From Cyrtodaria siliqua (Eukaryota > Mollusca > Bivalvia > Adapedonta > Hiatellidae): a DNA stretch of 64,000 nucleotides. The stretch lies in NCBI GenBank assembly GCA_037043455.1, contig JAWPHD010011506.1, positions 1-64,000 on the forward strand, in the 5' to 3' direction. The position numbers and the translations under genes are program-made. Within the stretch, counting starts at the first letter, position 1, and every line of letters starts with the position of its first letter. This document shows positions 8,669 to 55,159 of this stretch, piece by piece. A model generated the notes under the pieces. The model did not search any database. It had not been told where the DNA came from and saw only the letters and a list, made by a program, of their open reading frames with translations.

Positions 8669-8726
8669 GAAAGTTCCCATCAGACATGCCTCCACAAAGA
8701 AGCGAACCCATGCGGGGGCAGAGTAT

Positions 8727-31995: not shown

Positions 31996-32009
31996 TTACT
32001 GAGTGGGCA

Positions 32010-33699: not shown

Positions 33700-35080
33700 T
33701 GTAATGTTATGTTTACGTGGAATTTAGAGCTAATACACTTTCAATAATTTAAGACTTGTATATAAATGCAAAACATTACCTACAGTACCGTTTGTTTACG
33801 TTTTGGCAAAAATGGCGTCTCGGGGACAATATGTGTGTTTCATTTTTTACCTTTAAAACACATAGTGTTCTTTCAAAATTCACACAGAGTCAAACATATC
33901 ATTCTCACATAGCCCTAAACAAATATCAATATAAGATACTTTATAGCAACAGAAATATAAGCATAACATCACATACCGCTTACATATACTTTTCGGGCAA
34001 AACCATCCATGTTCAGGAGGGAAGGTGTATTAAAATCTAAATTAATTAAAATTTACTTCTGTTTTTCAAATGCAAAGCATTGAAAACGGAGGTGAAATTG
34101 TACTCATACCGCTATTATCTATACTACAACTTCCATTAGAATTACATTTCAAGTTCAACTAAACGCAAGTACCGTTATTTCTCATTTTATAGATGGAATG
34201 TTATTAATGAGACATACATAATCACTTGTTATCTGGGAGTACTGTAAGTATACTCGAGGCGAGGACTTTAAAAACACCTCGCTAAAAATGAACAAAGATT
34301 ATACCCTAGTGTAATATTTTATTTCAAAGTCAGTTGTGAGTATAAATCATTTCACGTTCACTTCATCAAATTGTGAAATACCGGTTTTAAATATGTGATA
34401 TACAAGGGCTACTGAGACATTAGTTTAAAAGTTGCATGACATAATTATTGAAACTATATACATGAGGCTTGGTAAATACCTCGAGTATATGTCCCCGTAT
34501 TCTAACCACTAATTAAAGCACTGCGGACATTATTCAATATAATATTTACATATATTTGTTTTATATATACATAGATGATCACATACAAAAGTAAGACACG
34601 ATCTCATCAGTAGAAACACATTTTTGCAGCTTACTCGTCCTCAATATGCTTACTTTTGCACATTTTATCTAGGCTGATCCTGATATGCATGTATATTATG
34701 TTTGCCTCCTTGACAATATTGTATATGTCTCGGTTTAGGGAAGTGAACCATTAATATGCTTGCACATGTATCTAGACATCGTTACCCTTGCATACTTGAC
34801 AAACATGTACATGTATCAATATTCAGCTAATAACTTAATCTATGTATATCATTTGTGTATTTCACATATTTATCAAGTTGGTGTTGAGTATCCAACGGTA
34901 GCAGTTATATGTGCCACAAATAGGTCAAATGATGTAAAACAAAAATATATTTCTTGTAAATGTAGTCAGGCATATCATTTATCCAATTTTAACAATTCAC
35001 TACACAATAAAGTGAAATCATCCTTAAAGGTATTCTTTTCTCCAGTAAATCATTTTGCTTAATCAATATTCTGCATTTTG
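33700..35080. other. Upstream of the HEPN gene; no exon identified
   Basis: No coding exon or clear promoter was recognised. The frames at 33,756-34,040 and 34,760-35,062 carry no motif. Any 5' untranslated exon of the downstream gene should lie here or further upstream. Confidence 0.45.
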
Positions 35081-35086
35081 TTTTAG
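35081..35086 (+). promoter_or_regulatory. Predicted splice acceptor before the HEPN exon
   Basis: A pyrimidine-rich CATTTTGTTTTAG precedes GGAAGATCC. The exon would start at 35,087 with 28 untranslated bases before the ATG at 35,115. Placing the start after a 5'UTR intron is an inference. Confidence 0.5.
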
Positions 35087-35114
35087 GGAAGATCCAGACA
35101 AAGTAAACAAAAAC

Positions 35115-35999
35115 ATGGCGGCGTTATTTGATACTACTAGCTACACTGAAAATTACCTCCGTCTTCATTTACTTGAGGTGAAAGGAGGAACGCCGGTTCT
35201 AAGAGAATTATTTTTAAAGATAGTGAACAATTCGTCGGCCAAAGGAGATGTAGACGTGTATTTAAATTATTTCAAGGATGATTTAAAGCAGGTAAAGTCA
35301 TCGACATCAGCGGAGTACCAGATGCTTTTCCCAAGCCACGGCAAGACAGACATCAACAAGTGGGATATTTCATTACTAGCCTATAAACTAATTCACTGCT
35401 GTACCGTTGAAGGACAACTTAGTATTAAAGGTAAATTGAACCCAAAGGAAATTTTAAAACAGGAAGTTAAGACAACAGGAGGATTGGATTCATTTTTGTC
35501 AATTAACAAGTCAAACATTGTCCAGATGGAATTCACCGACGAACAAAATAAGATACTATATCCCCCAAATGGTCAACCATCGGACATCAAATCATGGGAT
35601 ATAGAAGTTTTACTACGAATATTGTTTTGGCTTTGCGGTCGTGATAACTTACAGAAGGTATGCACTGTATGTAAATACATTGTGACTAGGCAGGTCGCAT
35701 TATGTGATACTGGTATTCGCTTAGCAAAGTTTCTCTCGAAAACTAAACACACATTTAAGAAATTAAGAGAAGATGCAAAGCTATCAGATTCTCAGTATAA
35801 GCAATTGTATCCTAGGGTTTTTACGTCAGATATCGGAAACTGGGACAATGACGTTTTGCTTATCGTTGTCCTTAATGCGTGCCAATCTTTCTCACAGACA
35901 ACATATGATGACGTCAAAACTGTCAGAAACATGCGGAAGGAATTGGGTGCACATGCAGAACGTACCGAGATTACTGATAACGAGTTTAGAGAAAAATAG
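35115..35999 (+). CDS. DZIP3-like HEPN protein, first coding exon up to an in-frame TAG
   Basis: 294 codons from an ATG in good context (AAACATGGCG). Residues 10-35 (YTENYLRLHLL, VKGGTPVLRELF) match the start of the DZIP3-like HEPN family, which is widespread in bivalve NLR-like and adaptor proteins. Three related segments follow: LFP..DINKWDISLL (about 68-97), LYP..DIKSWDIEVLL (144-174) and LYP..DIGNWDNDVLL (228-256), about 80 residues apart. The last precedes DVKTVRNMRKELGAH (267-280), the RN...H signature of HEPN domains, and ITDNEF (286-291). HEPN domains often act as RNases or as protein-interaction modules; which applies here is unknown. The reading frame continues unbroken after the TAG (35,997-35,999) to a donor at 36,316. 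Family assignment is by motif; function is inferred. Confidence 0.78.
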   Translation: MAALFDTTSYTENYLRLHLLEVKGGTPVLRELFLKIVNNSSAKGDVDVYLNYFKDDLKQVKSSTSAEYQMLFPSHGKTDINKWDISLLAYKLIHCCTVEGQLSIKGKLNPKEILKQEVKTTGGLDSFLSINKSNIVQMEFTDEQNKILYPPNGQPSDIKSWDIEVLLRILFWLCGRDNLQKVCTVCKYIVTRQVALCDTGIRLAKFLSKTKHTFKKLREDAKLSDSQYKQLYPRVFTSDIGNWDNDVLLIVVLNACQSFSQTTYDDVKTVRNMRKELGAHAERTEITDNEFREK

Positions 36000-36315
36000 C
36001 AATATTTGAGCGGTGCCATAACTGGCATTTTATGCAGTGAGTTGCCAAATATCAAAAAAGGCATAGAGGACGCAATTTATAATTTTCTGCGTGGCCCGCT
36101 GGACATTATGTCCTCGATAGCTGTATTGACAGAGTGTTACAGGAATTATGACACAAAGTATGATAACATATTGAAGACATTGTCTGTCATCAAATCCAAC
36201 ACTGAATCCATTGCACAAACAATGCAAGTGGGGTTTGCTACCACGAGTCGGAACATTCATCAAAGCGAAAGGAACATAATACAAAAGATGGATTCCGGTC
36301 ATCCACTAATCTTAG
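36000..36315 (+). CDS. In-frame continuation of the HEPN exon after the TAG
   Basis: The same frame stays open for 105 codons after the TAG and ends TTA-G|GTAAAG, a good donor at 36,316, leaving phase 1. It begins QYLSGAITGIL, which fits the helix that follows NEFxxxW in this family. It then becomes a probable coiled-coil or helical linker (YDNILKTLSVIKSN, SRNIHQSERNIIQKM). The frame has no other stop, so either the TAG is recent or this part is still translated by readthrough or after recoding. The open frame beyond 36,316 (to 36,455) is most likely intron. Confidence 0.65.
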
Positions 36316-36886
36316 GTAAAGTACTCAATATTGTCTGCATTTTCCCCCTGCTTCTTCCGTTTTTAGCTCTTGTCCACCTGTCGACCGTCGTCCGCGCTCA
36401 CGTTCACTACCTTAGATGGTTGGAGGTCTGGCTTAGCACAAAGGAATTCAATTAATGCCGTAAACACTTAAGCCTATTGTTCTTAAGTAGTCATTCCTTT
36501 GATATTAAACAACGGAAAAAACATTTAAAGATACTATAGCTGTATATAAGGTTAGTGCGCGTGTACCTAAAGCAAATGGGAGGTTGTTTACGCTTGGTTA
36601 ACTACCAAATTCAAGCTACTGAAACTTGGACTGAAACCCTTATATAAGGCAGTTTTATAGCAAACCGTTTTCATTTATTTACCTGCTACGGTAATGTACA
36701 CCCATTCACTGACAAATAGGTCGGCCTGGTGACAGTACAATGTGACTGAGTATGTTATCATGCTATGTGTCATGCGTGATAGTCCAGTGTGGCAGAATTA
36801 TAATGTTGAGCATTGGGCTCACGTAGAAAATGACCTGATACGATTGAAAGACTTTTCAAAGTGACTTTAAAACATACACACGCGCA

Positions 36887-36917
<31 letters not shown>

Positions 36918-37894
36918 AATTCACAATTTCTGCTCTCAAATAGTTTTACTCGGTATCGTGAGAAACAATAGAACTATTGCAAAGGGGCGAGTTTGGGCTT
37001 GAAAGTCAAAAGTAAACTTTCGTAAGTTTACAGATAATAACTCGTTTATCTTCCACTAATATTGCCTATAAACATATTAACTTAATCTGCATACATATCT
37101 GAACATATTACCATACTAAGTGTTTGCAATATCAATAAAAATGCTTTGTTATAAGTAAAATAAAAATACCTACCGTTTCCTGAGTGCTTCAAAATTGGAA
37201 CCGATTTAAAACTATATCCGACTTTGCGATTGCCGGTTATCAATATTGTCTTGGACAAGTTCAAAACCAGGGGCATATCTGATCCCGACCCTGACCCTAC
37301 CCCCTAATCTCTACCCATGGCCTCGTGCTATTTGTTGCTTCTAACACTCAATCCTGAACTCCCCCTCCCACAACCACCACCCTTTTCCACCTACACACAC
37401 ACCTTTTTTTAAAGCACAGAAGCGTTGTTTTTATTCATTTACCATCAAATTTGCCGGACAGTTTTTATGAATGAGATAAAATATATATAAAAACCTTATG
37501 GACAACATACAGCCTTAAACCAGTAAAGCGATATTATTTCTGCAATAATTAAATCGAATTTATTTCTGAAACAATTGCAAAAGAACACAAATATGAATGT
37601 ATATATCAATACATGACTTTCCTCATTATTGTGCGATTACCGGACAGACAGATTGTGGACCATATGATGACGTCTACCTTTATCTTTATATGACGGTAGC
37701 GTTTGATGTTTGTCATTAATTGTGTGTTTCATACCCTTAACGGTTTGTTCTCTTGATGCTCATTGAGTACTTACTTTGTGAATTTCTAGGCTTTTTATAT
37801 TATATATACATGATCATGTATGTGTTTTACTTAAATATTGCCTATTAATGCTGGCTTGTTTGTTAGAGATTATAACCTGGCCGGGATAACTGTA
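36316..37894. other. Intron 1, proximal part
   Basis: Non-coding. A CACG/ACGC tetranucleotide run lies at about 36,880-36,916. No other assigned feature. The whole presumed intron runs to 52,204. Confidence 0.55.
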
Positions 37895-38110
37895 TGTACA
37901 CTGTCCTGTTTATTGGGATGACAATAGGATAGTAATGAGGTTTGGTGCACATTAGAACCTGCTTTAAACCACCAGAGGCTTATTGGCCGCTGACCGTTCC
38001 AAGGCGGTAGCCCTATTGTCAACCATGTTGTGTTTTAGATGTCATATATTTCCTTTAATTCATCTTTATAGTTGTTTTTCGGTTGACTGTCGTCCTTGAA
38101 GTCTACTGTT
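37895..38110 (-). repeat. Dispersed repeat family F1, copy f
   Basis: Reverse complement of the F1 family: GACTGTCGTCC near 38,085, CTGACCGTTCCAAGGCGGTA near 37,992, and a match to GGTGCACC..TTATCCT further left. Confidence 0.75.
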
Positions 38111-38144
38111 ACAGCTCGATCTTATATCTACTTTTGTGTAGTAC

Positions 38145-39600
38145 GCTACTGAGTTTGCTAGGTAAACTCTTCACTATAAGTTAAAATAATTGGGCTGAAA
38201 ATTACACTGTGTATATCGAGGCACACGCAGGTTTCCGCAAACACATGAGAACAGTCGATAACATGTTTGTACTGCATGGAGTTATATCCAATATGATTAA
38301 TACTGGACAACAACTTTTATTGTGGGGTGTTTGTTGATTTTACGAACGCTTTTGACTGCATTGTGAAAAAAACCTATGGTTTAAATTAATAAAACTAGAG
38401 ATAAGAAGTAAAATATTTGATATTATAAAATCAATGTATAACTCAATAACATCAAGGGTAAAACATAATAAGTGTCTAAGTGTTGAGTTGACTTGTACGC
38501 TAGTTTGCGCCAAGGTGAATGTTTGTCTCCGTTTTTATTCTTAATGTTTTTTAAATGATCTGGAAGAAGAGTTTATATTACATGATGCTGAGAGAGTCGA
38601 CATTAATACAATGAAACGTGTTATATTACTAGTGTATTTTTGTTGTTGTTTTTTTTTGTTCTAAAACTGCAACTGGAATTACAGAAACGATTTGATATTT
38701 TAAGTGATTTCTGTATAAGTTGAAAATTAAAAGTAAAGACAACAAAAACAAAGGTCATTGTTTTTCGTAAAGCGGGTTCATTGCCTAGGACCTTTTGTTA
38801 CCTTGGAATTGTCTTCACTCAATTTGGATTAATTTAATGAAACACATGTCACATTAGCAGGCCTAGCACAGAAGGTAAAAATGAATGAATGTGTGTATAA
38901 GTTTACGAATATCTCTATTATTCACAACTTGGATTTGTTTGATTTGTTTGATACACTTGTACTTCCAGTTCTGAGCTATGGATCTGAGGTATGGGGATTT
39001 TCTACGGCTTTGAATATTAAGAGTGCATGTAAAATGTATTGAATGTATAAGGTGTATAACGGTGTACACATAATGATTTTATTTAGAGAATTTGGAAGGA
39101 TTAATCTAATCAACCGTAGGTATTTCAATATTTTAGAATATTGGACAAAGGTCATTGGATGTCATGAAAATAAATGTGTAAAACATGTTTATAATTTGAT
39201 GAGAGTGGGTGCTGAATTACACACAAACAAAACAAATTGGGTAACTTCATTAAAACAATTTTTAACTTCACTTGGTTTTCAGGATGCAAGGTGTAGGTTC
39301 ATTGAAATAAATCATTGTTCCAATGATTTATTTCTGTATAATGTAAAACAAAGATTGCAGGATAACCTTTTTCAAAATTCAAGTGGAGCAAAACTGTTTT
39401 GAAATCTTACTAATATGTTTCAAATACAACAAAATATAGAAATGCATTCAATTTATCAAAATTAAGACTTTAATCTCATAACTTACAAACAGAAGCTGAT
39501 AGATGGCATCAGCCGAATAGCATACCATTAAATCAATGTAAATGTATCACATGTGCAAAACTAGAAGATAAATATCATTTTTTGTTGAACGTTCGTTATA
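38145..39600 (+). mobile_element. Decayed non-LTR retrotransposon, RT plus C-terminal region
   Basis: Interrupted frames read LLSLLGKLFT-like, then HAGFRKHMRTVDNMFVLHG, then VDFTNAFDCIV (RT motif A with its catalytic Asp), a degraded GVRQG/LSPFLF region, LNDLEEEF, and TKTKVIVFRKAGS..CYLGIVF. An open stretch 39,043-39,402 covers the post-RT part (RRYFNILEYWTKVIGCHEN, NWVTSLKQFLTSLGF). The order of motifs matches jockey/CR1-like LINEs of molluscs. Many stops and indels make it inactive. It lies in the first intron of the HEPN gene, in the gene's orientation. Confidence 0.8.
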
Positions 39601-39632
39601 TTATTTGATAAGAAAAAATATATAAATATACT

Positions 39633-39710
39633 TTGTGGAGGGGAGACATATTGTTTTGTGCTGTCTGTCTGTTTATCTGTCTGTTGTCTGTCTGTTGTGT
39701 CTGTCTGTAG

Positions 39711-39741
<31 letters not shown>

Positions 39742-41660
39742 ATGTCTGTATGTCTGTCGTCTGTCGTCGGTATGTCACAGACTTTGTCCGGACTAGTTTT
39801 CCAGAACCCCTGGCCGGATTAGAAAAAAACTGTGCAGGGATGATCAGTACCCAGTACAAGTCTAATTGTGCATATCGTCGCCATGCGTCGGTTGAGTGAT
39901 TTGTGGCGGAGTTATGGCCGTTTAAAAGTTTTAATACACAAACTTTGTCCAGACTTGTTCTCCTTAACCCTTTTCCGGATTTTAACGAAACTTTGCAAGG
40001 ATGATCAGTACCAAGCCTTTTTATTCATATCTTCGCCGTGTTCCGGTTGAATGCTTTTTAGCAGAGTTATGGCCCTATATAGGTTTTAATACACGAAATG
40101 TGTCCGGAATAGTTCTCTTGAACCACTTGCTGGATGTCAACGAAACTTTGCAGACATGATCAGTACCAAGCCTAGTTGTACATATCGTCGTCGTGTTACA
40201 TTTTTTTTGGCGAGTTATAGCCCTATAAATGTTTTAATAACATTGTCCGGACTAGTTCTCCTGAACCCCCGGCCGAATTTCAACGAAACTTTGCAGGGAT
40301 GATCAATACCAAGCCTTGTTATGCATATCATCGCCATGTTTCGGTTGATTAATTTTTGACAGAGTTATGGCCCTTTAAATGTTTTAGTACACAGACTTTG
40401 TCCGGACTAGTTCTTCTTAACCCCTTGCCTGATTTCAACGAAATTTTGCAGAGATGATCAGTACCAAGTGTAGTTGTGCATATTGTCATCGTGTTCCGAT
40501 TGAATGATTTTTGGTAGAGTTATGGCCCTTTAAAGGTTTAAATACACAAACATTGTCAAGACTAGTTCTCCTGAACCACTGTCCAGATTTCAACGAAACT
40601 TGGGAATGAAATACATGATATATAGGGTCCTATAGAAACCACAGCGTCCGAAAGCAATGGCATTGTAGGTCCGCACTGTACTGCAAACAAGGACTTTAAA
40701 CTACAATAAAAGAGACAAAAAACAACAGAAAGGGTGATGAAGACAGGGTTACCGACTTGGAACGGTCAATAGGCAATAAGGCCTACTGGTTAGCTTGAAT
40801 CGATTTTATATGCGCACAATCCTCGCTATTATCCTGTCTTCAGCGCCCAAATAGACAAGACAATGTAAACAAAACTACATCCCATCAAAAGGAAATCTCT
40901 AACAATAAAGTCAACATCCAGAGAAACTAGCTAAAGATATACATACAAAATAATTAACATCTCAGGATGTATCCAGAAGCGTACTGAACAACCATAGTAG
41001 TTGCAGCTAAAGAGAAAACCAATCTAGGGTACGACCAGAAAACCCGAGGGACGAAAGCTCATGCACCCACCTCTCTTAGTTGGGGTTTCAGTAGGTACAA
41101 TCATAGAGTCCCAAGAGGTAGTCCAAGTCTTTTTTGCCCATGTTGTCGCCGTGTTCTGGTTGAATGACTTTTGGCAGAGTCAGGGCCTTTAAATGTTTTA
41201 ATACACACATTTTTCCCGACTAGTTCTCCTAAACCACTTGCCGGATTTCAACGAAACTGTATCATCGCTGTGTTTTGGTTGAATGATGTTTGGCAGAGTT
41301 ATGGCCCTTTAAATGTTTATTACATAAACTTTGTCCGGACCTGTTCTCCTGGATCCCCTGGTCAGATTTCAACGAAACTTGGCAAGGATGATCTGACCAA
41401 GCCCAGTTGCGGATATCTTTGCCATGTTCCGGTCAATTTATTACTTATGGCCCTTTAAATGTTTTAATACACAAAATTTGTCCAGACACGTTCTCCTGAA
41501 CCCCTAGCCGGATTTCAACGAGACTTGGCAAGGATGATCAGTACAAAGCCTAATCACGCATATCCTCTTTGTGTTCCATGTGAATGATTTTTTGCCGATT
41601 TATGATATTTTCCCTAGTCATGCTAGTGAGGGAGACATCTGTTTTTACTAAAAACAACCT
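39633..41660. repeat. Tandem-repeat element, units of about 155 bp, with a CTGT microsatellite
   Basis: Begins GTGGAGGGGAGACATATTG and a (TGTC)n tract (39,660-39,760), and ends GTGAGGGAGACATCTGTTTT. Between them about eight units share TTGTCCGGACTAGTTCTCC, TTTCAACGAAACTT, GGATGATCAGTACCAAGCC and AGAGTTATGGCCC. GGGAGACAT at both ends suggests one bounded element. An F1 copy (40,625-41,125) interrupts the array. Open frames at 39,868-40,050 and 41,171-41,458 only cross units. Confidence 0.8.
40625..41125 (+). repeat. Dispersed repeat family F1, copy e (longest)
   Basis: Contains the core ACTTGGAACGGTCA and runs on through CTCAGGATGTATCCAGAA, AATCTAGGGTACGAC and GGGACGAAAG..ATGCACC. The distal half pairs with the minus-strand copy at 51,380-51,575. 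It sits inside the 155-bp tandem array. Confidence 0.75.
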
Positions 41661-44554
41661 CTAGTTAAAAGAACTCATAAGATATCAAATGCTTTAAAAA
41701 AGAAAGCAATACCATATATAGTTGTGTTGCAATAAATGACATAATAGTAAGAGAAACTCATCTACGGATGTAGCAGTCCAAAGTGTGACGTCTTTTTTTC
41801 ATAACTGCATTTCGGGAATTGCTAAATAAAAGGAAAAACACAAAACTAAAGTAGCATTCTGACTGGTATCCAAAATTACAATTATGGAATTTTATGAATA
41901 TTGAACAAGGAGATCTATGATAAATATAAATAAGTAGAACACTTCCTTGCTTTTAACTTGAAATCGACGACGTCAGAAAAAATCACGGAGCACTAAAATG
42001 TACGTCAATTTTCATCGCAGATTTCATATATTCAATTTAGTCGAAACACGTTTACTGCTTTGGACATTATACAAGAAGTGTTGAACTTATAACGTAACAC
42101 TTTCATTTTGTAATTTAATTAAATGTATTGATATTTACCCCGAATGTTTTCATTTAATGATTCCTTTGATATAAAACAATGTGACATGAACAATAATGTG
42201 CTTCATATGTTGATGCATCCATATTTTTGTAAAGGGAAGAGAATGAGATTTGATGAAAATATCTTCAATTATAAATATAAACGCAATATGTTTTCAGGAA
42301 ACATTGCTTGTAAAATTGTCATTTAAATTTATATTATTCCGATATGTCCATGTGTGAAAGTAAAAAAAATGAAATATGTATTTTATTTATTGTTTTGCTA
42401 TTTTTTCGGTTTGCTCGTTTTCGTGAACATTAACATGAAATTCAATGCTATTAAAGTGATAAAATTGATGAAAAATCTAGTTCAAACCATCAGTTGCAGG
42501 AATTGTTATGATTTTGTTTATTTCGCCAATTGTTTTCTCGTTAAGGGCAAATCATTTAGTATGAAAATACCAGATTGATGATTTCATGTTCATCGTCATA
42601 TGCATGCCATCTTCGGGATGGCTCAAAATTTCGTACTATTGACATTTTAAATATGGAGTTCTGCTCAATCCGGAGCAGTTGACACTACCGTTCATGAACT
42701 GTCTCAATCAAACCGAGACTGTAGTATGTATATTATTTTTCCATTTACATTTATCGTGTTCGACGATTTCCACATTTCTCCTTTCATATTCCTTTTAATA
42801 CTTTATTATTATAACACGATTGAAAAGATGTTACTTAACACACACATTTAGAAACAATGACAACAAAACTAAAAAACAATTGACCAAAGATACGTTTATA
42901 TAGTATGTGATAAACAGTACCAATAACTATTCATCATTTTGCCTTACAAAATATGAAAAAATGCTTATTTTTGGTAATTGATAAAAATCATCTGTTAATA
43001 CGAGCAAACTGTCCGATTATCTGTCAGTTTCATAATATTGCGTTAAAATTCACACTTTTAATTCATGTTTTATATTAAAATTAAACTTACGATCATATTT
43101 AAATGAAAACACAGTTTTTAACAATCAGTATTATATTAAGCATTTGATGGATTTATTTTGGTTTAAGGTAAAACTGTACGGCATTAGAAACATAATAGAT
43201 TTAAAATTTGAAAATAGCAGGCAACTAATTAAAAATTATAGTTAAAGCGAACCGCGTGAAATCGGAAATTATGTTTAAATGCATCATGTCTAAATGACAG
43301 TCTCACCCAATTAAATCACGTATTTTTAATGACGTCACTTCGGATGAAGAAACAAATTTTGACCAAAATTGTTTCGCTATAAGTTGTAAACCTTGTGTAC
43401 ATGTGTTACGCTACTTTCAATGGTATTATAGTGTTTTAACTCCTTTCAAAGGGAAACAATATGCAGACATGACTTTGAATTATATTTGGCGCCGAACTTC
43501 AAAAGGAGACAATATGCTGACAAAGGTTTGAAAATGATACGACCACCGATTGAGCGTGACCATTGCACACATTCGGTATAACACGAATGGATAAGTAATT
43601 TGATCACAGTCTTTTATCTGTGTATTTGACATAACACGGTGGACTAGGGAAAACATGAAAACAGGGTGTTTTAATTAGTGTCATGTGTGATTATTTCTGA
43701 TTAAATTTAAATTGATATAACATGTTATCCCATCCTTTTGTATTACAAAATACAGATGACGTTGAAACGTGCATGTGTTAATGTGATGTATGCATATATT
43801 ATGTGAATATCTAAATCACAGTTTGTGTATTAATTGGTTATTATATGAAGATTTCTGTCATTTTGTCCATAGAAATAAATCCAAGAACGATATATATTTT
43901 ATAAATACATGTATATGTCATATTAAATTTGAACACGGTTATACATTTGGTATTCATGTATTGTATCTTATTCTCAACTTTAAATAAAATAAAAAATTGG
44001 CATGCGCATCCTACCGTATGCTGCATTTACAGCGCCTGCTTTCATAAAATGTGTGCATATGTAAGCAGATGACTTATAAATATATCATAGCCTTACATAT
44101 AAAATAAACAAAGGGATAATGTACAGTAATTTATAATAATAATTATACAACACTAACTTGTTTTTAGAAGAGTCACATCACTGTTGCAGTTCGCATACGA
44201 TCAAACGAAAGGAAATTGTGTGATTAAGCTTGTTTCTATTAAAGCTAAACAGACATCGCTTTAAAGAAAAATAATTACCTCTCATATCATCTTTAAATGA
44301 TCTATCTAATTTGTGTACGTTTCTCAAAACAAATAATATTAACAACGATATGTATATTATGTTCTTTTATATTTGATCAATTCGTAAGACGGTGGGTAAC
44401 TTAGCGCGACTTGCATACATGTGCGAAAAAAACATTAACTGTCCGCGCAAGTTTTCATGGGTAAATTATTATTCGGCGGATAAATTGGTTTTAAGACTTG
44501 TTTCTAATCCAGTGTATGTAGGTCTATGCTTTAGATAATAGGTGAAATAAATAA
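41661..44554. other. Intron 1, unassigned, with one small hydrophobic ORF
   Basis: Mostly AT-rich with nothing recognised. A 69-codon plus-strand frame from the ATG at 42,369 to 42,578 starts with a strongly hydrophobic stretch (YVFYLLFCYFFGLLVFV), as in a signal anchor, and later has SCRNCYDF. It could be a stray exon or chance; no family is assigned. Confidence 0.4.
42585..42722 (+). repeat. Short dispersed repeat (pairs with 55,848-56,010, inverted)
   Basis: Shares GCCATCTTCGGGATGGCT, GTACTATTGA, GAGTTCTGCTCAA and CAATCAAACCGAGAC with the reverse complement of 55,848-56,010. No coding content. Confidence 0.8.
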
Positions 44555-44675
44555 AGAATATTATGTCAGTGCATTTTACTATCAAGTTTATTAGGCGAGA
44601 CTTAGAAAACGAAGAATGGCGTGGCTCTCCCGAGCCTAATAAACTTGATTGTAAAAGGCACTGACATAGTATTCT
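44555..44675. mobile_element. Hairpin MITE
   Basis: 121 bp. Arms 44,555-44,596 and 44,634-44,675 are reverse complements at 39 of 42 positions (TATGTCAGTGC..TTTTAC..ATCAAGTTTATTAGGC) around a 37-bp spacer. Target duplication not resolved. Confidence 0.8.
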
Positions 44676-45576
44676 ATTTATCATGTCGATTATTCACATT
44701 TTCTGTATGAATTACTATTATTACCTATTTGTCAGAATGTAACTCTTATCGAGGACGCCGTCATGTGTTTGTTTTATGACGTCAGGCAACGTTACGTGCA
44801 TGACGTCAGATAACGTTACGTACAATAAACGCCGAGGGATTCCGCATTTATTCGCTCTATTGGTCAGTGCAAAGCAACATTTATTAGGTCACCCCTTTGT
44901 TAGGCAGAAAAGTGCATATCTGCATGATAAAGTTGTTTAACTGAAACTATACTGTTTTGCTATCTTCTCCGCATATATATCTATATTATGCGATGAAAAG
45001 CAATATAAAAAGTACAGCATAAATACAGGCTATTTTAAAAACGAGTCCCTATTCATAACGAGTTTCATAAATCATATATGAAATGGGATGGGGACCAGTT
45101 GAATATTCGTTTTATCACATAGCATTAGTCAAATATGTACAATATAATTCAGATGAACATGAACAAGCCAGGACTTCAGACAAACGTTAGCACCAAAACG
45201 TCATAAATGCACGTCTTTTGACGACAAAACGTGTGACGTCATAACGTTGGGTATCAAAGAGTTCATGTTTTATATCTTTACCAAGGGCAGTTTACGCTGA
45301 CTTGTTAAAAAAAATACACTGATTTGTATAACGTTATTTTTTTTGTTGGTAAATACTGAGGTTGTATTGCACATGTGTACATACAATAGAATATTAAATG
45401 GGTGTTCGACACTGCTAACAAGGGACGTTATGTAATAAATAATAATAACAATAACATAATTTAAAACAAACCAAATCGTGTTTATGTCTTGCATGCTGTA
45501 TGTTGTGTAGTGTTTTTCCTTAGTGTGCTTTTCCTTTTTTCTTTTTTTTTAAATAGTTCTTTGTATAAGTACACAT
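44676..45576. other. Intron 1, unassigned
   Basis: No recognised feature. Several TGACGTCA-like palindromes (about 44,760-44,815 and 45,200-45,245) occur, but they are short and of uncertain meaning. Confidence 0.4.
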
Positions 45577-46368
45577 CGTCCCATCAACGCAATAACTCTG
45601 TAAGCGACATATTTTCAGAAAACTACTTTTTTACATAAATGGGTCTCTCATATTGAGATACATGTTCTATCAAAAGATAAGTGTTGATTTGGCACTTTTC
45701 GGGATTTTATTTCATTAGATGCACAACTCACTATCTGCAGTCATGAAAAAGTTCAATGCAACAACTCAATAAGTGCACTTACGGAGTTGTTGCATTGAAT
45801 GTTTCAATGCAAAATCTCTGTAAGTGCACTAACAATAACTCTGTGAGTGCACTTGCAGATTTATTGCATTCAATTAATCTGAGTATCATCACTTATGACA
45901 AACAAGACTGTGATGTCACTAAATTAATATGATGTCATATTTTTTTAATTTATTATTTAGCTTATAAAATATATATTATTCATACAAAAAAGGAAACATT
46001 TTACAGTTTTCCACCAAAATAAAACTTAAATCACTGATCAACACAGGTTGATATTGAACTCTAAAACCATAGATTAAAAAGAAAAAATACAAAATTTTAT
46101 TGTAATTATTAAGATTATTAAGATTAAGACCTTAGTTATATTTGAGCAATTTACATCTTTACAATGGACCTGTTAATTAGAAATTGACGAAAATAGTCAT
46201 TTTGTTTTTATCAATATAAATGTGATTGCCCGTGTTTTATCTTTCCTAATAAAATACTTGTTAGATATTAGTTTTATCCTCATTGAATAATAGAAAATAA
46301 TTCCCCATTTGATGTAATTCTATCCTAATAGAATTAATTACCTGTTTTACTATATCAATGCTATCCAG

Positions 46369-46498
46369 AATATTACATTGCTGTGAGGGTGAATATTACC
46401 TGAGAAAAATAATGTCAACCATATTAGTTGGAGCCGAGGTAGACAATTTCTTTCTGAAGGTTGAACATTTTCACTCACCCTCACAGGAATGTAATATT
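46369..46498. mobile_element. Short inverted-repeat element (MITE-like)
   Basis: Arms 46,369-46,392 (AATATTACATTGCTGTGAGG..) and 46,475-46,498 are reverse complements over 24 bp with one mismatch. The total length is 130 bp and there is no coding content. It is nested in the 5.1-kb element. Confidence 0.7.
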
Positions 46499-47373
46499 TA
46501 TTTTATTATAATGAAAAATACATGAAAAAATAATTGGTTCTGCTGAATACTAAAATATAAACATTATTTTGAAATAAATCATTACAAAAATTGTTTGTAC
46601 ACTTTAATAAATCAACCGTAAAAGCAAAGATAAATAATTTTATATGTGTGCATTGAGTTTTTCTAAACGGGCGCTCATCATTTGTGTGCATGTAACAGTG
46701 TATTTAGCGGCCAATAGTGAAAGTGTTTCATGGTCCGTCTATGGAAGCTCAGCATGTTCAACATTGTGTTTAAGACTTGTTGATTCATTTACAAGTGTGT
46801 ATATAATGGTGTAGCGGGTAATAGGGGGAAATGTTTCAGAGTTTAACAATTTTATTTAAGGTAGGTATGATAACAGAAAATAAGTACCAGTATGTTTAAT
46901 ATCTACTTCATAGAAAAGAATTACCTGTATGCTATCCAATCTCATAGAAAAGAAATTTGCATGTGTTTTTTGTGTCTGTGTAATTTAATTAATACCGTTA
47001 CAAACAAACGGTAATTTAAATTAATTTAGTGGCATCAAACTTTGTACAGGTAATGGTGAGGACGATGCTTGATTGTGAAAAGCTACTTAAGAACTGAGGT
47101 CAAATTAGTTATTATTGATAAACCAATTACTCAGACATTAAGACAAGTCATAGTAGTATTTATTTTGACCTGCAACAAGTGTTGTGTCTACCCCATGATG
47201 CTATGCATCAAGTTTATTCTCCGCGCCCAAGTTAAGCAACTTTTAACTTATCCATTTACTCTATGGGGTCAGGTGACGGCTTTTTATATATTTGGAATGA
47301 AATAATTGCAAAAAGGGAATCCTGTGAGGTGTTTATATGCTTTTGGAAGCAATGGCTGCTATTGATAACTGTT

Positions 47374-47942
47374 TTGTGGAGCGCTTTGGTCTAGTGGTAG
47401 AGCGTTGAACCCTTGATCGAAAAGTCGTCGGTTCGATTCCTGCCATAACCATTGTGTCCCTAAGCAAGACACTTTATCTGCATTTGCTAAGTACTTGTTC
47501 TACCCAGGAAGACATCAAGAGTGGTTCAAATAAGTTCATAGAGCTTTAGAGCTTTTGTTACAATGTTAAATAATTAAGTTTAAACTAACTGTTCAGTGGC
47601 CATGCTGTGGTATGCCATAAAAACTTTCTGTGTATAGCAGTCATATGTATTTGAAGAGGCCACACTCAAAACAAAAGTTATTATTCTTTTCATTCCACCA
47701 TTGAATGTGCAACCAAAAATACAAACTGCTCAGTGGACTTTGCCATACAAGCTTCTTGAATTATGTATGTTAGTGAGGAAAAGTCAATTCTTATGGATGG
47801 CGGGATGTGTACAGTACTGGTTCTACCCTGTAAAAGTGGGTGGTCTGCCTCCACCACCAACAAATAAAATCAACCATCATATATAACCTTACATGTGTTG
47901 AAAATGATGTAAAACACCATACAAACAAGCAAATATTGTTAT
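47374..47942 (+). mobile_element. tRNA-derived SINE, possibly composite
   Basis: The head at 47,376-47,450 has an A-box-like TTGGTCTAGTGG and a B-box GGTTCGATTCC, then TAAGCAAGACACTTTA, a variant of the motif in the SINE at 8.7-9.05 kb. The 3' end, GTAAAACACCATACAAACAA, also occurs at 30.4 kb. At about 570 bp it is long for one SINE and may be two retroposons. The 61-codon frame inside (47,701-47,886) is not called. Confidence 0.65.
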
Positions 47943-48766
47943 AAAACCTATAATGTTACTCAGCTGGCAATGAACTGACTTCAGTGATTTAAGATTACTT
48001 AGACACTGCCACTAATGGCATGAACATTTGAACATGAAATGGACATCCCCTAGAAACTTGGACAATTGATCCAACTGACATGATGACCATCAAGTAAGAC
48101 CATGATGGTATTCCCTAACAGTAAGTCTGATGCCATGTGTAAGTAAACATTCAAAGCTACCAGAACCTATAAATAAAAGAGTGCCATTCTAATACTGAAT
48201 TTATTAAACAAAATGGATAAAATTGTATCCAATAAGTTTAGTAAATTCAGTATTAAATAGGCATGAAAGTGAGATTCTATTTACCACATACTCCAAAAAT
48301 GTAACATGAAATACACATTTGTAAATGTAGTTGCTTTAGTCTTCTCTGTAACACTCTGAACAGTCAGAACTGCTTCACTGATTTCCGAATTAACAGTTTC
48401 GAAAATCTATTACAAACTGACCTGAACAGAAAAGGCCAAAATATGATGATTTGACCTTATTTATTTTTCATGTTTATTACACTCAACTGTATTATGATAT
48501 TTTTGTAATTGTTTTATTATACTCTCACATCGCAAGTTATGTGATGCAATGGTACCCCACCCATTTCTGTAAACTTTGTACCAAAAATGATTATTCCAAT
48601 CGTGTATCATGACTTTTAAAAATGTATAAAGTGAATGTGTTGCAATAATGATGCTTGTAGCATGGTCACTGAAATTCTCTTTGTCAGAATAAATGCTGTA
48701 CTACGACTACCAGTTATTGGAAGTTAGAGTATGGCAGGGAGCTGAAATGGACATGCTACAAAACAA

Positions 48767-48869
48767 ATAGAGTATGGTTTCATCTCATTGGTTAATTTAA
48801 ACACCTCGATGGGCTACGCCCATCTCGATGTTTAAATTAACCACCTCAATGAAACCATATATACTCTAT
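48767..48869. mobile_element. Near-perfect hairpin MITE
   Basis: About 100 bp folding into arms of about 48 bp (AGAGTATGGTTTCAT..GGTTAATTTAAACA..GATGGGC) with a TAC loop at about 48,815-48,817. It is immediately preceded by GGACATGCTACAAAACAAA, a sequence that recurs at about 49,943. Confidence 0.8.
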
Positions 48870-49762
48870 CTATTACTTATCAGTTTGTACAAGCTGTAAT
48901 GAGTGCCATGCTATGAAATCATATAAATATGCTGGCACTGTGTCAGATTAACCTTATAGAAAACCTTTCTTGAGTGAAATGTGAATACATTTTTTAGAAG
49001 AAAAGAAAATGCTTCTATGAATGAAGTGATTGCAATGCCAATACTAATCCTTCTGAAATATTGCTTAATTAAGAAATGATGTACAAATTCTCAGCGTTTA
49101 TACAATTTTAAACGCTGGTAGTGAATTGCAAATTCCATGTGGGCAGTAGCTCGTCCTACTTGAAAAATTAAGTTTATTTGAAAGTTTTTTCCCTTCAGAA
49201 AGTATCAAGTGAATGTAAAAATTAATAAGGAGTTAAAATGATTATTCATTATTGACCAGCCCCTTTAGATGTTATAATTGCCAATATCTGATTATCAAGC
49301 TGCATGGCATTTTAAAATATCTTGCAAAAACGTGGATTCACAGGGCTTTTTCTAGGACCCGTTCCCAATGCAAAATAGTGTATTTTTTACATTTAATGTA
49401 CTGATACATCCCTTATGTTACATACTAATCAATATAAGTAGTATGTTATTGATGTAGCAGTGTTCCTAATTGTACCTATTAGGCTATAACCTCATCGCAA
49501 CTTACACAATTTGACGTAAACAATTCTCAATTGGCCATTTTATCGATGTAAAGAATCCCTCCCAATTTGGTCATTTTTACGACAGAAATTACCCACATTT
49601 ACAAGGGTCCTTTTTCCTAAGATACCTGGAAAAAGCCTTGAATCAGTTTTGTTTGTACTACCCTTATAGTATAGATTTCCATGAAATAATCTGTGATTTT
49701 TTTAGCATTTTTACGACATGGCCATAAATTTTAGGTATGAATCCAAATTTTTTAATTTTATG

Positions 49763-50275
49763 GCTGAAGTATATATACACTTAAGAGATATGAAAACGCA
49801 ACACGGGAATTTCCGCTATATATTGTATGTACAATATGCTGCTTTTAATCGAATGGTACATGGCTACGTAAGACCTTTCCTTTTGGAAAAAATACTAAAA
49901 CAGCAAATAGTATTCCTTCAATGTTTCATTATTCACAGAGTGGACATGCTACAAAACAAACAGAGTTCATGTGAGCAAACTTAGGATGCAACATTTTGCA
50001 AACTATTTACGTTAAATACAGTATTGAACTAGCGCAATTTTTCAAAGAGCAACTTCAACATTTATGAAGTTTTTGTTACAAAGTGTAGTGTGATTAAAAC
50101 GTCTACAACATCACAGTTGTGTCCTTTCTCTAGTTAACTGCATTTTTGTTTTAAAAAACATCTTGGGATTTCTTTGGAATATTATGTGCAATTAAGTGTG
50201 CAGTATATACAATATATAGCGGAAATTCCCTTGTTGCGTTTTCATATCTCTTGAGTGTATGTTAAGCTATATATA
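49763..50275. repeat. Inverted pair inside the 5.1-kb element
   Basis: 49,763-49,830 and 50,200-50,275 are reverse complements around AGAGATATGAAAACGCAACA and GGGAATTTCCGCTATATATTG, about 370 bp apart. The frame at 49,718-49,984 runs through the left arm, which argues against it being a gene. Confidence 0.7.
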
Positions 50276-50671
50276 CTTAAATCACAAGCAACTACAAATG
50301 CAAGTTAGGTATTAATAATAATAACCAGCACAATTATTCACAAACAGCATTTAAGACTATTAAACTTAGCAAAGTGAAGTTGTTGCGTTGACTTTTTTCA
50401 GTGCAACAACTCCGTAAGTGCACTTACGGAGTTGTTGCGTTGAACTGTTCAGCGCACAAAGTCACTATGATTTAAATATTATCATTAACTCATTTAAAAA
50501 TAGTTTTAATTTAAATATCATAAAAGAGTGACCATAGTAAAGGTATATTACACTTAAATCTAAGGAAGTGTCTTTATATGTACCATTGTTAAGGAAAAAA
50601 ACAGTTTTTTGTCTCTCCTGAACAATTTACCAAAGTGAACTTACGGAGTTATTGCGTTGATGGGACGACAT

Positions 50672-52204
50672 AGCTATTGCACGTACCTGCTATCAACCTT
50701 GTATATATGTTTTGTATCATCATGGATGATAACATTTTGAAATGTTGCTGAATATAAAATCTATATTCAACTTTAAACACATTCGGAATACTTTAAAACA
50801 AAGAGATGCATTATATTATCATTTCAGATTTGACACAGCAGTTCGAAGCCTTCAGAACTGAAGAACCGGCGTACAGTGAAACGAGAGAAATTAAGTGTAT
50901 GTTTATTTTTAACAGTTTTCCCGGTAGTAATTATTCAAGAGAAGGCTTGACTCTATCTAACAGGACGAGATGGTCCCAAATGTTGTTCTACATAGAATAC
51001 ATGTACTGTATCGTTTTATAATTTGTTATATAGAAGACACCTGTTCTGATTTTGAAGTAAACACGTATTATTCTTTGCAAAAATAATCACTACTTCTAGA
51101 ATTATTCCTCAAACTGCACTACATATACAGTCACGAATGTAAGATTATATTATTATTCACATTCCACCACTATGATATTAATGTTCTAAATGTTCCTTTA
51201 ACACGACGAAAATTGCAATTTCATTCATAAGAGAAAGCATGACGTTGTATTGGGTCGTATCCCATATTGTGTCGTATTCGTCAGAAAAGGATGCGACGCG
51301 TTAGTATTGCAACGCACTTCATGTTTAGTGATTGACTCCTCTACAGTCAGTCACTACACTTCACGTTTCCCTTGTTCGATGACTTGACAACCGCTTGGAA
51401 TTCTATGATTGCGCCTGCTGAAACCTGGACAAAGGTAGGTAGGTGCATCAACTTTCGTCCCAAGGGTTTCATAGTCGTACCCTAGATTGTTTTTCTCTCT
51501 GGATGCAACTGCTGATTAGTACAATTCTGGATACATCCTGAGGTGTTTCTAATGATGTTTTTGTTTTATCGTTTCACCTTCTGACTCCTCATAATGTGCG
51601 TGAATTCATAAACAAGTACACTTCATTTATATTTCATTGAGCTTTATATATACTGACGATTTTCGTCAGTTCGTGCATGTTGTATAGTGCGAACTTGATG
51701 CCATATGATTGATTATCACTGTATTCATAAATTGCAAGAACATGCAGCGATAATATACTGTAACAAACGTTTAGTTTTGTCAGTCTTTGAACATGAGCGA
51801 TAAGATAATATAGTTGTGGTTTGATTGCTGTTGATTTCTGGCTCAGTTGTATCAGTCGTCAACAGTTGAAGGATTTGCATACTTGTTTGGCTTAGAATTC
51901 TCATTTCCTTTTGGACTAGTATACCTAGTTTTGATGTTCAACGGTAACTAGAGACGAGTGGTGTGAACGTCTCATGCAACAATTTCATTTAATAAACATG
52001 TCTGGTCAATATATGTTTCGTCTCTTGGTTAAATATGATTTAATAAACATTTCTGGGCAATATATGCGTTTTCTACCGTTTTCCTTTATGAATACAATTG
52101 CAAATTCAATAATTGATTTTAAACTAAATTAAAGTGTGGTTTTCATACCTCTGCTGATGTGTACTTTGTGTTAATTATTTGTTCATGTATACGACTATTT
52201 TCAG
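50672..52204. other. Intron 1, distal part
   Basis: Non-coding apart from the F1 copy at 51,380-51,575. It ends in a good acceptor, ACTATTTTCAG, at 52,204. Confidence 0.5.
51380..51575 (-). repeat. Dispersed repeat family F1, copy g (distal half)
   Basis: Reverse complement matches 40,940-41,132: CTCAGGATGTATCCAGAA, CAATCTAGGGTACGAC, GGGACGAAAG and GTTTCAG(C/T)AGG. Confidence 0.75.
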
Positions 52205-52594
52205 GTTTTGATGTTATATTTGTGGTGAGAGGTAGCAGTAAAGAAACTTTAGATAACGTAGAATTTCTCATCATAAAAGCATTTGACGGAATCCAAGACC
52301 ACAAAACAGAAAAAATAAAAGAAGATATCATTATGGAACTACTCTCAAAAGATAAAACGGCAATTGTTGAAACTCGGCGTGGTTCTGTCATTGTAGTGGT
52401 TAAGTGTGTATCCGTACAAGGATTACACACGTTATTCAATACTTTAGACAGCAACGAATTTAAAGGTCGGCTAAATGATCTGGCAACCGTCTTAACTGAA
52501 ATGACCGGATGTCAAATCGGTGTCACGGCCTCCATTCCTGCGCCTTCTCTTCAAATCATACTTGACGAGATAAAACAGGTGGAATCCCGTATAG
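52205..52594 (+). CDS. TRADD-N-like exon of the HEPN gene
   Basis: A 390-nt exon (130 codons) between the acceptor TTTTCAG (52,204) and the donor G|GTATGT (52,595), phase 1 at both ends. Spliced to 36,315 it restores a Gly codon in frame. Residues run from FDVIFVVRGSS through an alpha-helical middle to GSVIVVVKCVSVQGLHTLF and CQIGVTASIPAPSLQIIL. The pattern of a GS(V/L)xxxxx strand, a ...LxxL(F/W) helix and a following helix-strand fits the TRADD-N-like domain found next to NLR-type STAND NTPases and HEPN domains in invertebrates. Such domains are thought to mediate homotypic signalling contacts. The open frame past the donor (to 52,629) is probably intron. Domain name is inferred. Confidence 0.7.
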
Positions 52595-52827
52595 GTATGT
52601 CACAAACAGGCAAGTATATATTGATTTAACTACTTAAAGCTACAAGTCTCTATAATAACTCATGAATATGGATGAGCCACGTGTGAAGTAGTTTCAAATC
52701 GACGAACACCCCCAAAAGTTGCTATATAAGGCAAAAATCGATGAGTAATATATCACATATTTATTTAGTCTTCGTACAGGTAACATCGATAAATATACGG
52801 CTTCAGAATATATGTGATTACAAAGTA

Positions 52828-52912
52828 CTTGCCCGGAACGGGACTTGAACCACAGACGTTGCGCTTTTAAGTTTTGATGAATGTACGTTTAACCATAAGA
52901 CCACGGCTATTA
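52828..52912 (-). repeat. tRNA-like sequence, minus strand
   Basis: Minus strand shows GCCGTGGTCTTATGGTTAAA (A-box-like) and GTGGTTCAAGTCCC (B-box-like), about 50 bp apart. The acceptor arms pair poorly, so it is a SINE head or tRNA pseudogene rather than a functional tRNA. It lies in the intron between the two TRADD-N-like exons. Confidence 0.55.
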
Positions 52913-53187
52913 ATTGGTATATTTTAGCTATTTAACACTAAATAGGCATTACGTAATAACTAACGCACACACAACCTCATCAAGCGCAAAATAACAAGTC
53001 TAGAGATGGTTGTTTTGAGGCGAAATACTAGTTTCCAATTGATAACATATAGCATTAGACCAGGCAATGTTAATTTACACGTGCGACAAGATGGACTATA
53101 TATTCATTTATTCATCTTGAGTTGCGTTCAAATAGGTTAAGTTATTTTGCCTCTTAATAAATAGTAGCTAGCATACTGTTTTACCAA

Positions 53188-53264
53188 GCAGCGATATAGA
53201 TCAGTGGATAGAACACCCGACTTGAAATCAGAAGGTCGTGTGTTCGAGTCCCGAAACAGGCAAT
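53188..53264 (+). repeat. tRNA-like sequence, plus strand
   Basis: TAGATCAGTGGATAGAAC (A-box-like) and TGTGTTCGAGTCCC (B-box) are about 30 bp apart with a plausible anticodon-arm region between, but the acceptor stem cannot form (GCGATAT against AACAGG). Likely SINE-derived. It sits opposite in orientation to the one at 52.8-52.9 kb. Confidence 0.55.
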
Positions 53265-54870
53265 TGTTTTTCTTCTGTAAATCATAATGTTACCTGTGTA
53301 CATATACGATGTGCACTGGTCGATGTCTATACAATAAATGATGTCCTGTGTTATATTTGCTTGCTTAAATACCCGATTTCGACATGAGCTGGTGAATATG
53401 AAGTTACAAATGAAGACATGCCTAGAAAGAAGAATCGATATCGAGACTGTGTAGCTTTAAGCTACTATAGCTATACCTAATAAGTACCTAATACGTATAA
53501 ATAAAAAATATGGCGTGGTTTTAATTTCTGTTTATCTCTTCCATAACATTGTCGTAAATCCGTATACAAGAAGAGTAACTTATACCAGGACATCTTTTAA
53601 ATCCGTCATTCGATGTAGCAACATCAATAAACTACACTGTCCTAATCACTGAAAAATAGTGCACGAGATTAGAACTCGAGAAGCTGATTTTGTTTTAATT
53701 GTTTTATATTTTTTAAATCATTCATAACATATTCATTATAATAGTATAAAATGCATTATTCATAAAAGCAAATAATATTGACTATATATATTGTTGTTAT
53801 TATACCAATACACTCTTTTTTATATTTATTATATACTATGTTGTTTTGTTATTATGTTACAGAAACTAACACGCCAAACAACGGCAAACGTTGACTACAA
53901 AACCGTGTATCAAAACTCTATCCAGGTGTTCAGGTCATATAATAATATATATGTGCCGATTAAAAAAAACGTTTATTCATGGGTTATAAAAATACCTGTG
54001 ATTGACTGTGCATAAATGAATTCGCGACCAACTATACAGCGATTATCATAATTCGATTGTTTTCTTTCGAAATCCTAAAGAAACCGGGATCATCCCTATT
54101 TGGTGATTACCTTTTTGATGTTGTAAAATGCATTCACATATTTGCAATCCATATTTTCTGGATTTTTCGAAGGTCTAATGTTCTTAGAAACGCACTGAAT
54201 CACACAAACGATTATACAATTAATAATGGCAACAGTGTTATAAATATATCATTAGCCATGACGCTGTTGAACAACTGGATACAGGCATGTGATAAAACAT
54301 ATTAATATCAATCCGGGTTCGAATCGCGCACAGATCATAATAATTGTCACTGAAAGGGTTTGCTTTTTTATGTCGTTTCGTCGGTCGCAGGTAAAGTTGT
54401 CTTTTAAAGTTTGATGTTGGTAATAAACCAAGCGTTCAAACCCTACTTAAGGTAAAAGTCCACTATTCTTTAAAACTATTGTTAAAGTAGCCTTTAACAA
54501 TTTCTCTTTAAGCAAGCTATCTTGCTTTCTTGCTTTCAGCATTTGTTTTAAAATAAATACATTCTAATTATTCCGTGTAAGTATAAATTCGGCAAATGGA
54601 ACCCCTTCAAAACAAGAAAAAACATGTTTTTATTGAGTCTGTTTATTAGAACTAAAAATGTTTAATGTACCACATTTACATTCCCTATGCTTGAGCGCTA
54701 TGGTACTTTGACGCTTGTGAATCAATCCTACATTTCATGTTCGGCTTTTTTATCTAATTTTGATACTTCCAAATGAAAGGGTCAATAGTAGCTATACTAA
54801 TAAGTCTACATTTTGTATATGTTTAACATTCTTTTCTATCTCTACTTTGCAATTTAACTCGAGTACACAG

Positions 54871-55062
54871 GTTCTGTTAAGATGCGACTAAAAGCAACAT
54901 CAGTGAAAGAACTAGCACGTATCTGGCAGACGGTTCAAGATGACAGTTTTACCAAAAACCTTCAAATACTGTCAGAAATGTTGTCTCATCAACTTAATGA
55001 GAAGATTGAGGTCAGTGTCTTGCTTCAACCAGAGGAGATCCAAGCAGCTCTTCAATCGGCAG
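54871..55062 (+). CDS. Second TRADD-N-like exon of the HEPN gene
   Basis: A 192-nt exon (64 codons) between the acceptor GAGTACACAG (54,870) and the donor GCAG|GTATTG (55,063), again phase 1 on both sides. The sequence (GSVKMRLKATSVKELARIW, SFTKNLQILSEMLS, IEVSVLLQPEEIQAAL) aligns with the C-terminal half of the preceding exon: GSV, then ..K..SV..L...., then a closing I.V.......I..(A/I)L. The gene therefore seems to carry a tandem pair of these modules. If the donor is not used, translation would stop at 55,091. Further exons were not found in the remaining 9 kb. Confidence 0.65.
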
Positions 55063-55159
55063 GTATTGTTTTATTGATGACGGGTATTTAATTGTGGGGT
55101 AAATATAAAAGCCAGCCCTTTAGACTAAATAAATAATATAACATGTAGTCTAACATGGG

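What the first reader, a model, noticed from the sequence alone, without database searches (positions are those of the whole stretch)
35115..55062. HEPN plus tandem TRADD-N-like gene, a candidate innate-immune effector or adaptor
Seen: a long exon with DZIP3-like HEPN hallmarks and the RN...H motif, then two exons whose peptides match each other in a TRADD-N-like pattern, all phase-compatible and with good splice signals. Known: HEPN and TRADD-N-like modules occur as effector or adaptor parts of invertebrate NLR-like systems. Inferred: here they are joined without a visible STAND NTPase or TIR, which would make a compact sensor-less adaptor or RNase effector.
Basis: partly seen in the sequence, partly recalled or inferred. 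Interest (0 to 1): 0.8.

Follow-up and report, generated by a model that had tools for sequence, protein, structure and literature searches.

The report
HEPN–TRADD-N-like immune gene, nonsense copy
This is one copy of a large animal gene family that appears to join an RNA-cutting (HEPN) part to a signalling-adaptor-like part and that probably belongs to innate immunity; this copy carries an early stop that a nearly identical copy lacks, and its front and back parts seem to come from different gene lineages.

Summary
The three exons exist and share phase 1. They recur as a unit: exon 2 relatives lie downstream of exon 1 relatives on the same strand in 15 of 17 matches, exon 3 relatives in 20 of 23 (window included). 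Exon 1 is HEPN_DZIP3 (E 3.5e-16, three stretches); its catalytic-type R and H are kept in 20 of 20 copies aligned. Exons 2 and 3 resemble each other, and exon 2 a TRADD-like_N exon of the same genome, but Pfam's cut-off is not reached. So this copy is probably a null allele of a live family (44 long matches). It is also a mosaic: most of exon 1 goes with one paralogue, exons 2-3 with others. 'Sensor-less' is doubtful: no STAND NTPase was found to the contig end (28 kb after exon 3), but a distant member (C10045) has a phase-compatible NACHT-like exon 12 kb after exon 3. HEPN-TRADD-N fusions in bivalves and cnidarians are published (PMC8195603), so this is a variant of a known kind. Function is inferred.

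The parts
35115..36315 (+). Exon 1: start codon, three HEPN_DZIP3-like repeats and a linker; donor GT at 36316. Interrupted by the in-frame stop below.
   Evidence: Pfam PF18738 E 3.5e-16, 3 stretches with the stop read as X; 44 of 90 matches in the own genome cover at least 250 of 294 residues; start Met region shared by relatives
35997..35999 (+). In-frame TAG, codon 295, in the third HEPN repeat; relatives have Trp in this column
   Evidence: Translation; 19 of 19 relatives Trp; contig C19693 is open here
35934..35954 (+). Codons R274 to H280, the Rx5H catalytic-type motif of the third repeat
   Evidence: R and H in 20 of 20 aligned copies; spacing Rx5H in 19, Rx4H in 1
35304..35402 (+). 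Core of first HEPN_DZIP3-like repeat (residues about 64-96, placed by eye), no R...H motif
   Evidence: Sequence pattern; Pfam reports 3 stretches
35532..35636 (+). Core of second HEPN_DZIP3-like repeat (residues about 140-174, placed by eye), no R...H motif
   Evidence: Sequence pattern; Pfam reports 3 stretches
35718..36029 (+). Third HEPN_DZIP3 repeat (residues 202-305), best Pfam stretch
52205..52594 (+). Exon 2: TRADD-N-like domain; has a 2-residue in-frame gap where its 11 aligned relatives have none
   Evidence: 17 matches in own genome; alignment A1; weak PF20694 in 3 of 12 members, best E 0.0021; hhalign to own-genome TRADD-like_N exon E 1.4e-5
54871..55062 (+). Exon 3: second TRADD-N-like piece (C-terminal half of the exon 2 domain); donor GT at 55063, so the gene goes on
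   Evidence: 23 matches in own genome; alignment A2; hhalign to exon 2 profile; donors of relatives
36316..52204 (+). Intron 1. The paralogue affinity of the gene changes between about 36.0 kb (end of exon 1) and 51.9 kb; the point itself is not resolved
   Evidence: Trees, flank alignments, 100-base steps along exon 1

Best explanation
The locus is a nonsense-carrying copy of a live multigene family that encodes a triple HEPN_DZIP3 module followed by one and a half TRADD-N-like domains and further, unseen exons. Shown: the exon set and its conservation as a unit, the stop, a nearly identical collinear copy without it, and discordant ancestry of exon 1 against exons 2-3. Inferred: in intact members the third HEPN repeat is a metal-independent RNase; the two degenerate repeats scaffold or pair with it; the TRADD-N-like part is the switch or adaptor that brings the HEPN sites together when a receptor assembles, either a partner protein or a STAND NTPase further down the same protein, as the C10045 locus suggests; RNA is then cut as an antiviral or cell-death output. 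In this copy translation would end just after the catalytic motif, before the last part of the HEPN domain and before the TRADD-N-like exons, so it is most likely a null allele, or at best a HEPN fragment without its adaptor. C19693 is most likely the other haplotype.
Confidence: 0.6

Rival explanations
1. The gene is an NLR-like receptor: HEPN and TRADD-N-like modules lead into a STAND (NACHT-type) NTPase exon that the window's contig does not show because introns are long, or that this copy has lost.
For: Family member C10045 (exon 1 at 39,416, exon 3 at 85,244, both +) has an exon with a P-loop at about 97.2 kb, +, 12 kb on; Pfam NACHT E 9.2e-5, 22.8 bits, cut by the contig end; its acceptor is phase 1, as is the exon 3 donor (by eye). 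C7942 has exon 3 at 20,999+ and a NACHT exon with a phase 1 acceptor at 66 kb+; C2591 has a partial exon 1, exon 3 and NACHT at 167 kb, all +. Exon 3 ends at a conserved donor.
Against: The C10045 match is below Pfam's cut-off (26.7) and that copy is distant (46% in exon 1, 34% in exon 3). In C7942 and C2591 the NACHT lies 45 and 75 kb on, and C7942 has no seen exon 1. No Pfam NACHT, TIR or LRR at E<=0.1 on the + strand from 55,063 to 83,302, and neither NACHT peptide matches the DNA held. Of the 96 scored NACHT places none lies downstream of exon 1 on the contigs of the other family members; C2995 has two, over 100 kb upstream (96 of 410 candidates scored).
Confidence: 0.4
2. The stop is an assembly or base-calling error and the window copy is as intact as its relatives.
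For: A nearly identical copy is open here; exon 1 against C19693 has dN/dS 0.13.
Against: The two contigs differ at about 1-2% of sites even in their most alike part, so real variation exists. The window copy also has a 2-residue gap in exon 2 unique among 12 and lacks the AG that 5 of 5 relatives examined have 17 bases before the shared GGT of exon 3. Other loci carry lesions (C7537, C938).
Confidence: 0.2
3. The locus is a decaying duplicate (pseudogene), and C19693 is its parent paralogue, not its allele.
For: Stop in exon 1, gap in exon 2, lost upstream acceptor of exon 3; divergence from C19693 rises from about 1-2% to 4-9% from 52.3 kb on.
Against: C19693 lies wholly within the aligned stretch, as a haplotig would; exons 2 and 3 are open; dN/dS below 1.
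Confidence: 0.25
4. Exons 2 and 3 are a family-specific alpha-beta domain of ferredoxin-like type, unrelated to TRADD-N.
For: No Pfam hit in the window; ferredoxin-like folds score like 1f3v; a second own-genome TRADD-like_N exon (L052) did not match the profile (E 0.17).
Against: Match to own-genome TRADD-like_N exon L054, E 1.4e-5, 0 of 200 shuffles as good; sub-threshold PF20694 hits in 3 of 12 relatives.
Confidence: 0.25

Closest known systems
Bivalve and cnidarian HEPN plus TRADD-N multidomain proteins (PMC8195603, passages read)
   Same: HEPN RNase N-terminal to a TRADD-N domain in lineage-specific expansions; proposed effector/adaptor role in immunity; TRADD-N at the junction of constant and variable parts; STAND NTPases among the variable parts
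   Different: The published Crassostrea gigas type has Ig repeats, a DED and WD40 or cGAS-like parts; here three HEPN_DZIP3-like repeats come first, no DED, Ig or WD40 match was seen in the stretches scanned, and two TRADD-N-like exons follow; the TRADD-N-like part is divergent
DZIP3/hRUL138-like HEPN genes of pearl oyster (PMC9646362, abstract and passages seen)
   Same: Expanded HEPN_DZIP3 genes with Rx4-6H motif, strong haplotype differences, copies with and without NACHT
   Different: TRADD has 0 occurrences in that paper's main text; here the HEPN exon is coupled to TRADD-N-like exons
HEPN superfamily RNases (PMC3710099, passages read)
   Same: R...H motif of Rx4-6H type, spacing 5 here; DZIP3-type fusions to NACHT, DEATH, CARD listed there
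   Different: Lys after R in 14 of 20 copies instead of the usual N, D or H; two additional degenerate repeats

Membership tests
HEPN_DZIP3 (PF18738) | Pfam score above the curated cut-off (27 bits) | tested here: met
   59.7 bits with the stop as X, 56.1 bits up to the stop; 20 of 20 family members match
HEPN_DZIP3 (PF18738) | Rx4-6H motif | tested here: met
   Rx5H at R274-H280; R and H in 20 of 20
HEPN_DZIP3 (PF18738) | Complete, translatable domain in this copy | tested here: not met
   TAG at 35997-35999 falls before the end of the third repeat
HEPN RNase | RNase activity that depends on R and H | not testable with these tools
   Needs biochemistry
TRADD-N (PF20694 TRADD-like_N) | Pfam score above the curated cut-off (23.7 bits) | tested here: not met
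   Window exons 2 and 3: no match at E<=1; 3 of 12 exon 2 members at best 18.3 bits. So it is called TRADD-N-like and not filed as a member
TRADD-N (PF20694 TRADD-like_N) | Profile similarity to an accepted member | tested here: met
   hhalign to own-genome exon L054 (C16935:21082-21240), E 1.4e-5, 66 columns, 0 of 200 shuffles as good. Of three such exons one more was tried, L052, without match; L053 was not compared
TRADD-N (PF20694 TRADD-like_N) | TRADD N-domain fold | tested here: inconclusive
NLR-like (STAND NTPase) receptor | NACHT or NB-ARC domain in the same gene | tested here: inconclusive
   None found on the + strand to the contig end; a NACHT-like exon 12 kb after exon 3 in distant member C10045; the 3' end of the gene is unknown

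The most novel reading that the evidence does not exclude
The family is a modular repertoire in which an RNase half (triple HEPN) and a fast-changing TRADD-N-like half are exchanged between loci, the junction lying in or just before the long first intron, so that effectors are rewired to new signalling partners or STAND sensors; null alleles such as this one segregate in the same individual. The window gene is one such exchange, and its 3' half also differs more between the two nearly identical contigs than its 5' half.
Probability: 0.3. Interest if true: 0.6.

Novelty: new variant of a known kind. Interest (0 to 1): 0.42.

Why it matters
It shows at exon resolution how an invertebrate immune family may diversify: catalytic and adaptor exons of one gene have different paralogue ancestry. 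The layout (three HEPN repeats, doubled TRADD-N-like pieces, in one distant member perhaps a STAND NTPase behind) gives a concrete object on which the published idea that TRADD-N acts as a switch for linked effectors can be tested, with stop and no-stop copies in one genome.

Tried and rejected
Protein search of the joined exons (X at the stop) in the 5.8-billion set: none of 7997 scored candidates at E<=0.001, so no cross-species homologues were obtained. PDB sequence searches with exon 2 and with the exon 1 and exon 2 profiles gave no relative that I trust. Foldseek with the exon 1 model gave nothing at E<=0.001. A search for a fourth exon by comparing open frames downstream of exon 3 (six loci, seven, whose output was cut) showed only exon 3 and repeat-like matches. 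The Ribosomal_L19e_C hit (14 of 20 members, below cut-off in the window) was set aside as a short charged stretch.

Changed on re-checking: I had first written that no NACHT lies downstream of a family member. One search shows C7942 and C2591, and searches added C10045; the NLR rival was raised from 0.15 to 0.4. I had first placed the exchange inside intron 1; one search shows that the affinity to C6060 fades already at about 36.0 kb. A genome search with the C10045 NACHT peptide, which would show how many members have it, did not complete.

The organism was not identified; that it is a bivalve is inferred from the kind of family expansion, not from a call. That HEPN sites usually form by dimerisation is recalled. 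Of papers I saw listings and found passages only, no whole text.

In the trees 13 loci were used; left out beforehand: C938 and C7537 (frame breaks in exon 2), C942 (no exon 2 match), C21675 and C505 (exon 2 but no exon 1 match).
Full report
What is there. Exon 1 encodes a HEPN_DZIP3 protein, 59.7 bits against a cut-off of 27, in three stretches when the stop is read as X. But exon 1 is not open: a TAG stands in frame at 35997-35999, codon 295.

Is it a gene family? The window is part of an unnamed 2.88 Gb genome, contig C11506 of 83,302 bases. Exon 1 has 90 matches there (133 of 220 candidates scored), 44 of which cover at least 250 of 294 residues; 43 of these 44 have no stop within the matched stretch (the query ends at the window's own stop, so that stop is not counted; some places may be alleles of each other). 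Exon 2 has 17 matches, 15 of them downstream of an exon 1 match on the same contig and strand. Exon 3 has 23 matches, 20 of them downstream of an exon 1 match on the same strand, one of these (C2591) with a partial exon 1 only; C505, C7942 and C75 have no exon 1 match. The window itself is counted each time. PF18738 as a whole gives 151 matches, a lower bound.

The stop. Contig C19693 (34,665 bases) matches the window from 35,141 to about 65.6 kb, collinear, with gaps, in the three pieces read (24.7 of 34.7 kb). In 500-base steps the identity is 97.6-99.2% in 35.1-39.1 and 46.8-52.3 kb (39.1-46.8 was not compared), then 91.1-95.8% up to 58.3 kb. Its exon 1 is open through the site. All 19 other rows of the exon 1 alignment, made from the 20 best matches, have Trp in the column of the stop. 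C19693 lies wholly within the aligned stretch, which fits a second haplotype; a recent duplicate cannot be excluded. Other copies are damaged too: C7537 has a stop in exon 3, and C938 and C7537 a frame break in exon 2.

Mosaic ancestry. Exon 1 of the window, up to the stop, is nearest to C6060 (dS 0.30) and far from C4387 (0.96), C19693 aside; exon 2 is near C4387 (0.22) and C6381 (0.14) and far from C6060 (0.92). In trees of 13 loci exon 1 joins C6060 with support 97/95, exon 2 joins C4387 and C6381 with 100/99; the exon 2 data reject the exon 1 grouping (p 4e-56), the exon 1 data reject the exon 2 grouping more weakly (p 0.033). The groups were named after one search was seen, so the p values are indicative. 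Non-coding flanks agree: window 34,636-35,114 aligns with C6060 but not with C4387 or C6381, and window 51,941-52,204 aligns with C4387 and C6381 but not with C6060 (1.5 kb flanks were held). In 100-base steps C6060 is ahead until about 36.0 kb; from 36.0 to 36.3 kb no paralogue is close (at most about 73% of aligned bases), and a 65-base match at the end of exon 1 is to C6381. At least one exchange between loci, somewhere between about 36.0 and 51.9 kb and before C11506 and C19693 split, explains this.

Is there a sensor? On the + strand from 55,063 to the contig end Pfam gives only zf-RVT and DDE_Tnp_4/HTH_Tnp_4, i.e. transposon parts, at E<=0.1; short exons could escape such a scan. Genome-wide, 96 of 410 NACHT candidates were scored. 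Among contigs of the family, C2995 has two NACHT places over 100 kb upstream; C7942 (exon 3, no exon 1 match) and C2591 (partial exon 1) have one 45 and 75 kb downstream on the same strand. The NACHT exon of C7942 starts at a phase 1 acceptor (by eye). A search with its first 107 residues gave 147 matches (150 of 249 candidates scored), the weakest in C10045 at 97,234, 12 kb after exon 3 of that member and on the same strand. The stretch has a P-loop and a NACHT match (E 9.2e-5, 22.8 bits, cut-off 26.7), starts at a phase 1 acceptor and is cut by the contig end. Neither NACHT peptide is found in the window or the other DNA held, apart from each other. So some members may be HEPN-TRADD-N-NACHT receptors; for the window and its close relatives this is open. 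HEPN_DZIP3 and NACHT also lie within 6 kb of each other on one strand in C2248 and C2163.

Known or new. A paper on TRADD-N domains reports expansions in Crassostrea with an N-terminal HEPN RNase, Ig repeats and DED-TRADD-N, and N-terminal HEPN with TRADD-N in cnidarians, with STAND NTPases among the variable parts (PMC8195603, passages); it suggests transposition as a source of new fusions and places TRADD-N at the junction of constant and variable parts. The pearl oyster paper reports HEPN_DZIP3 genes with and without NACHT and strong haplotype differences (PMC9646362, passages). So the kind is known. The triple HEPN plus doubled TRADD-N-like layout, the exon-wise mosaic and the stop/no-stop pair are new details as far as four searches of open-licence papers show.

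Noticed in passing
window 52333-58332 against C19693: Identity between the window and the nearly identical contig drops from about 98-99% to 91-96% at the TRADD-N-like exons; a second exchange or a very polymorphic 3' half.
   Followed up: partly
L063 (C10045:97226-97689): NACHT-like exon with P-loop 12 kb after exon 3 of a distant family member, cut by the contig end.
   Followed up: partly
window 62425-63132 and 57974-58627, + strand: Probable retrotransposon remnants; zf-RVT match in the first.
   Followed up: no
L010 about 8290-8940 (contig about 82.3-82.9 kb): DDE_Tnp_4 transposase with HTH_Tnp_4, E 4.2e-33.
   Followed up: no
window 52634-53460: About 830 bases of intron 2 match, inverted, a stretch upstream of exon 2 of C1039 at 85% identity; probably a mobile element.
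   Followed up: no
C2248:79268-83691 and C2163:258380-264887 (own genome): HEPN_DZIP3 and NACHT matches close together on one strand, candidate HEPN-NACHT genes.
   Followed up: no
window 31856-32357, - strand: Three overlapping open frames with repetitive Ser/Phe/His-rich peptides, probably a minisatellite.
   Followed up: no
L053 (C15437:26222-26374): TRADD-like_N exon in a long open frame that looks like NCOA6 by eye.
   Followed up: no
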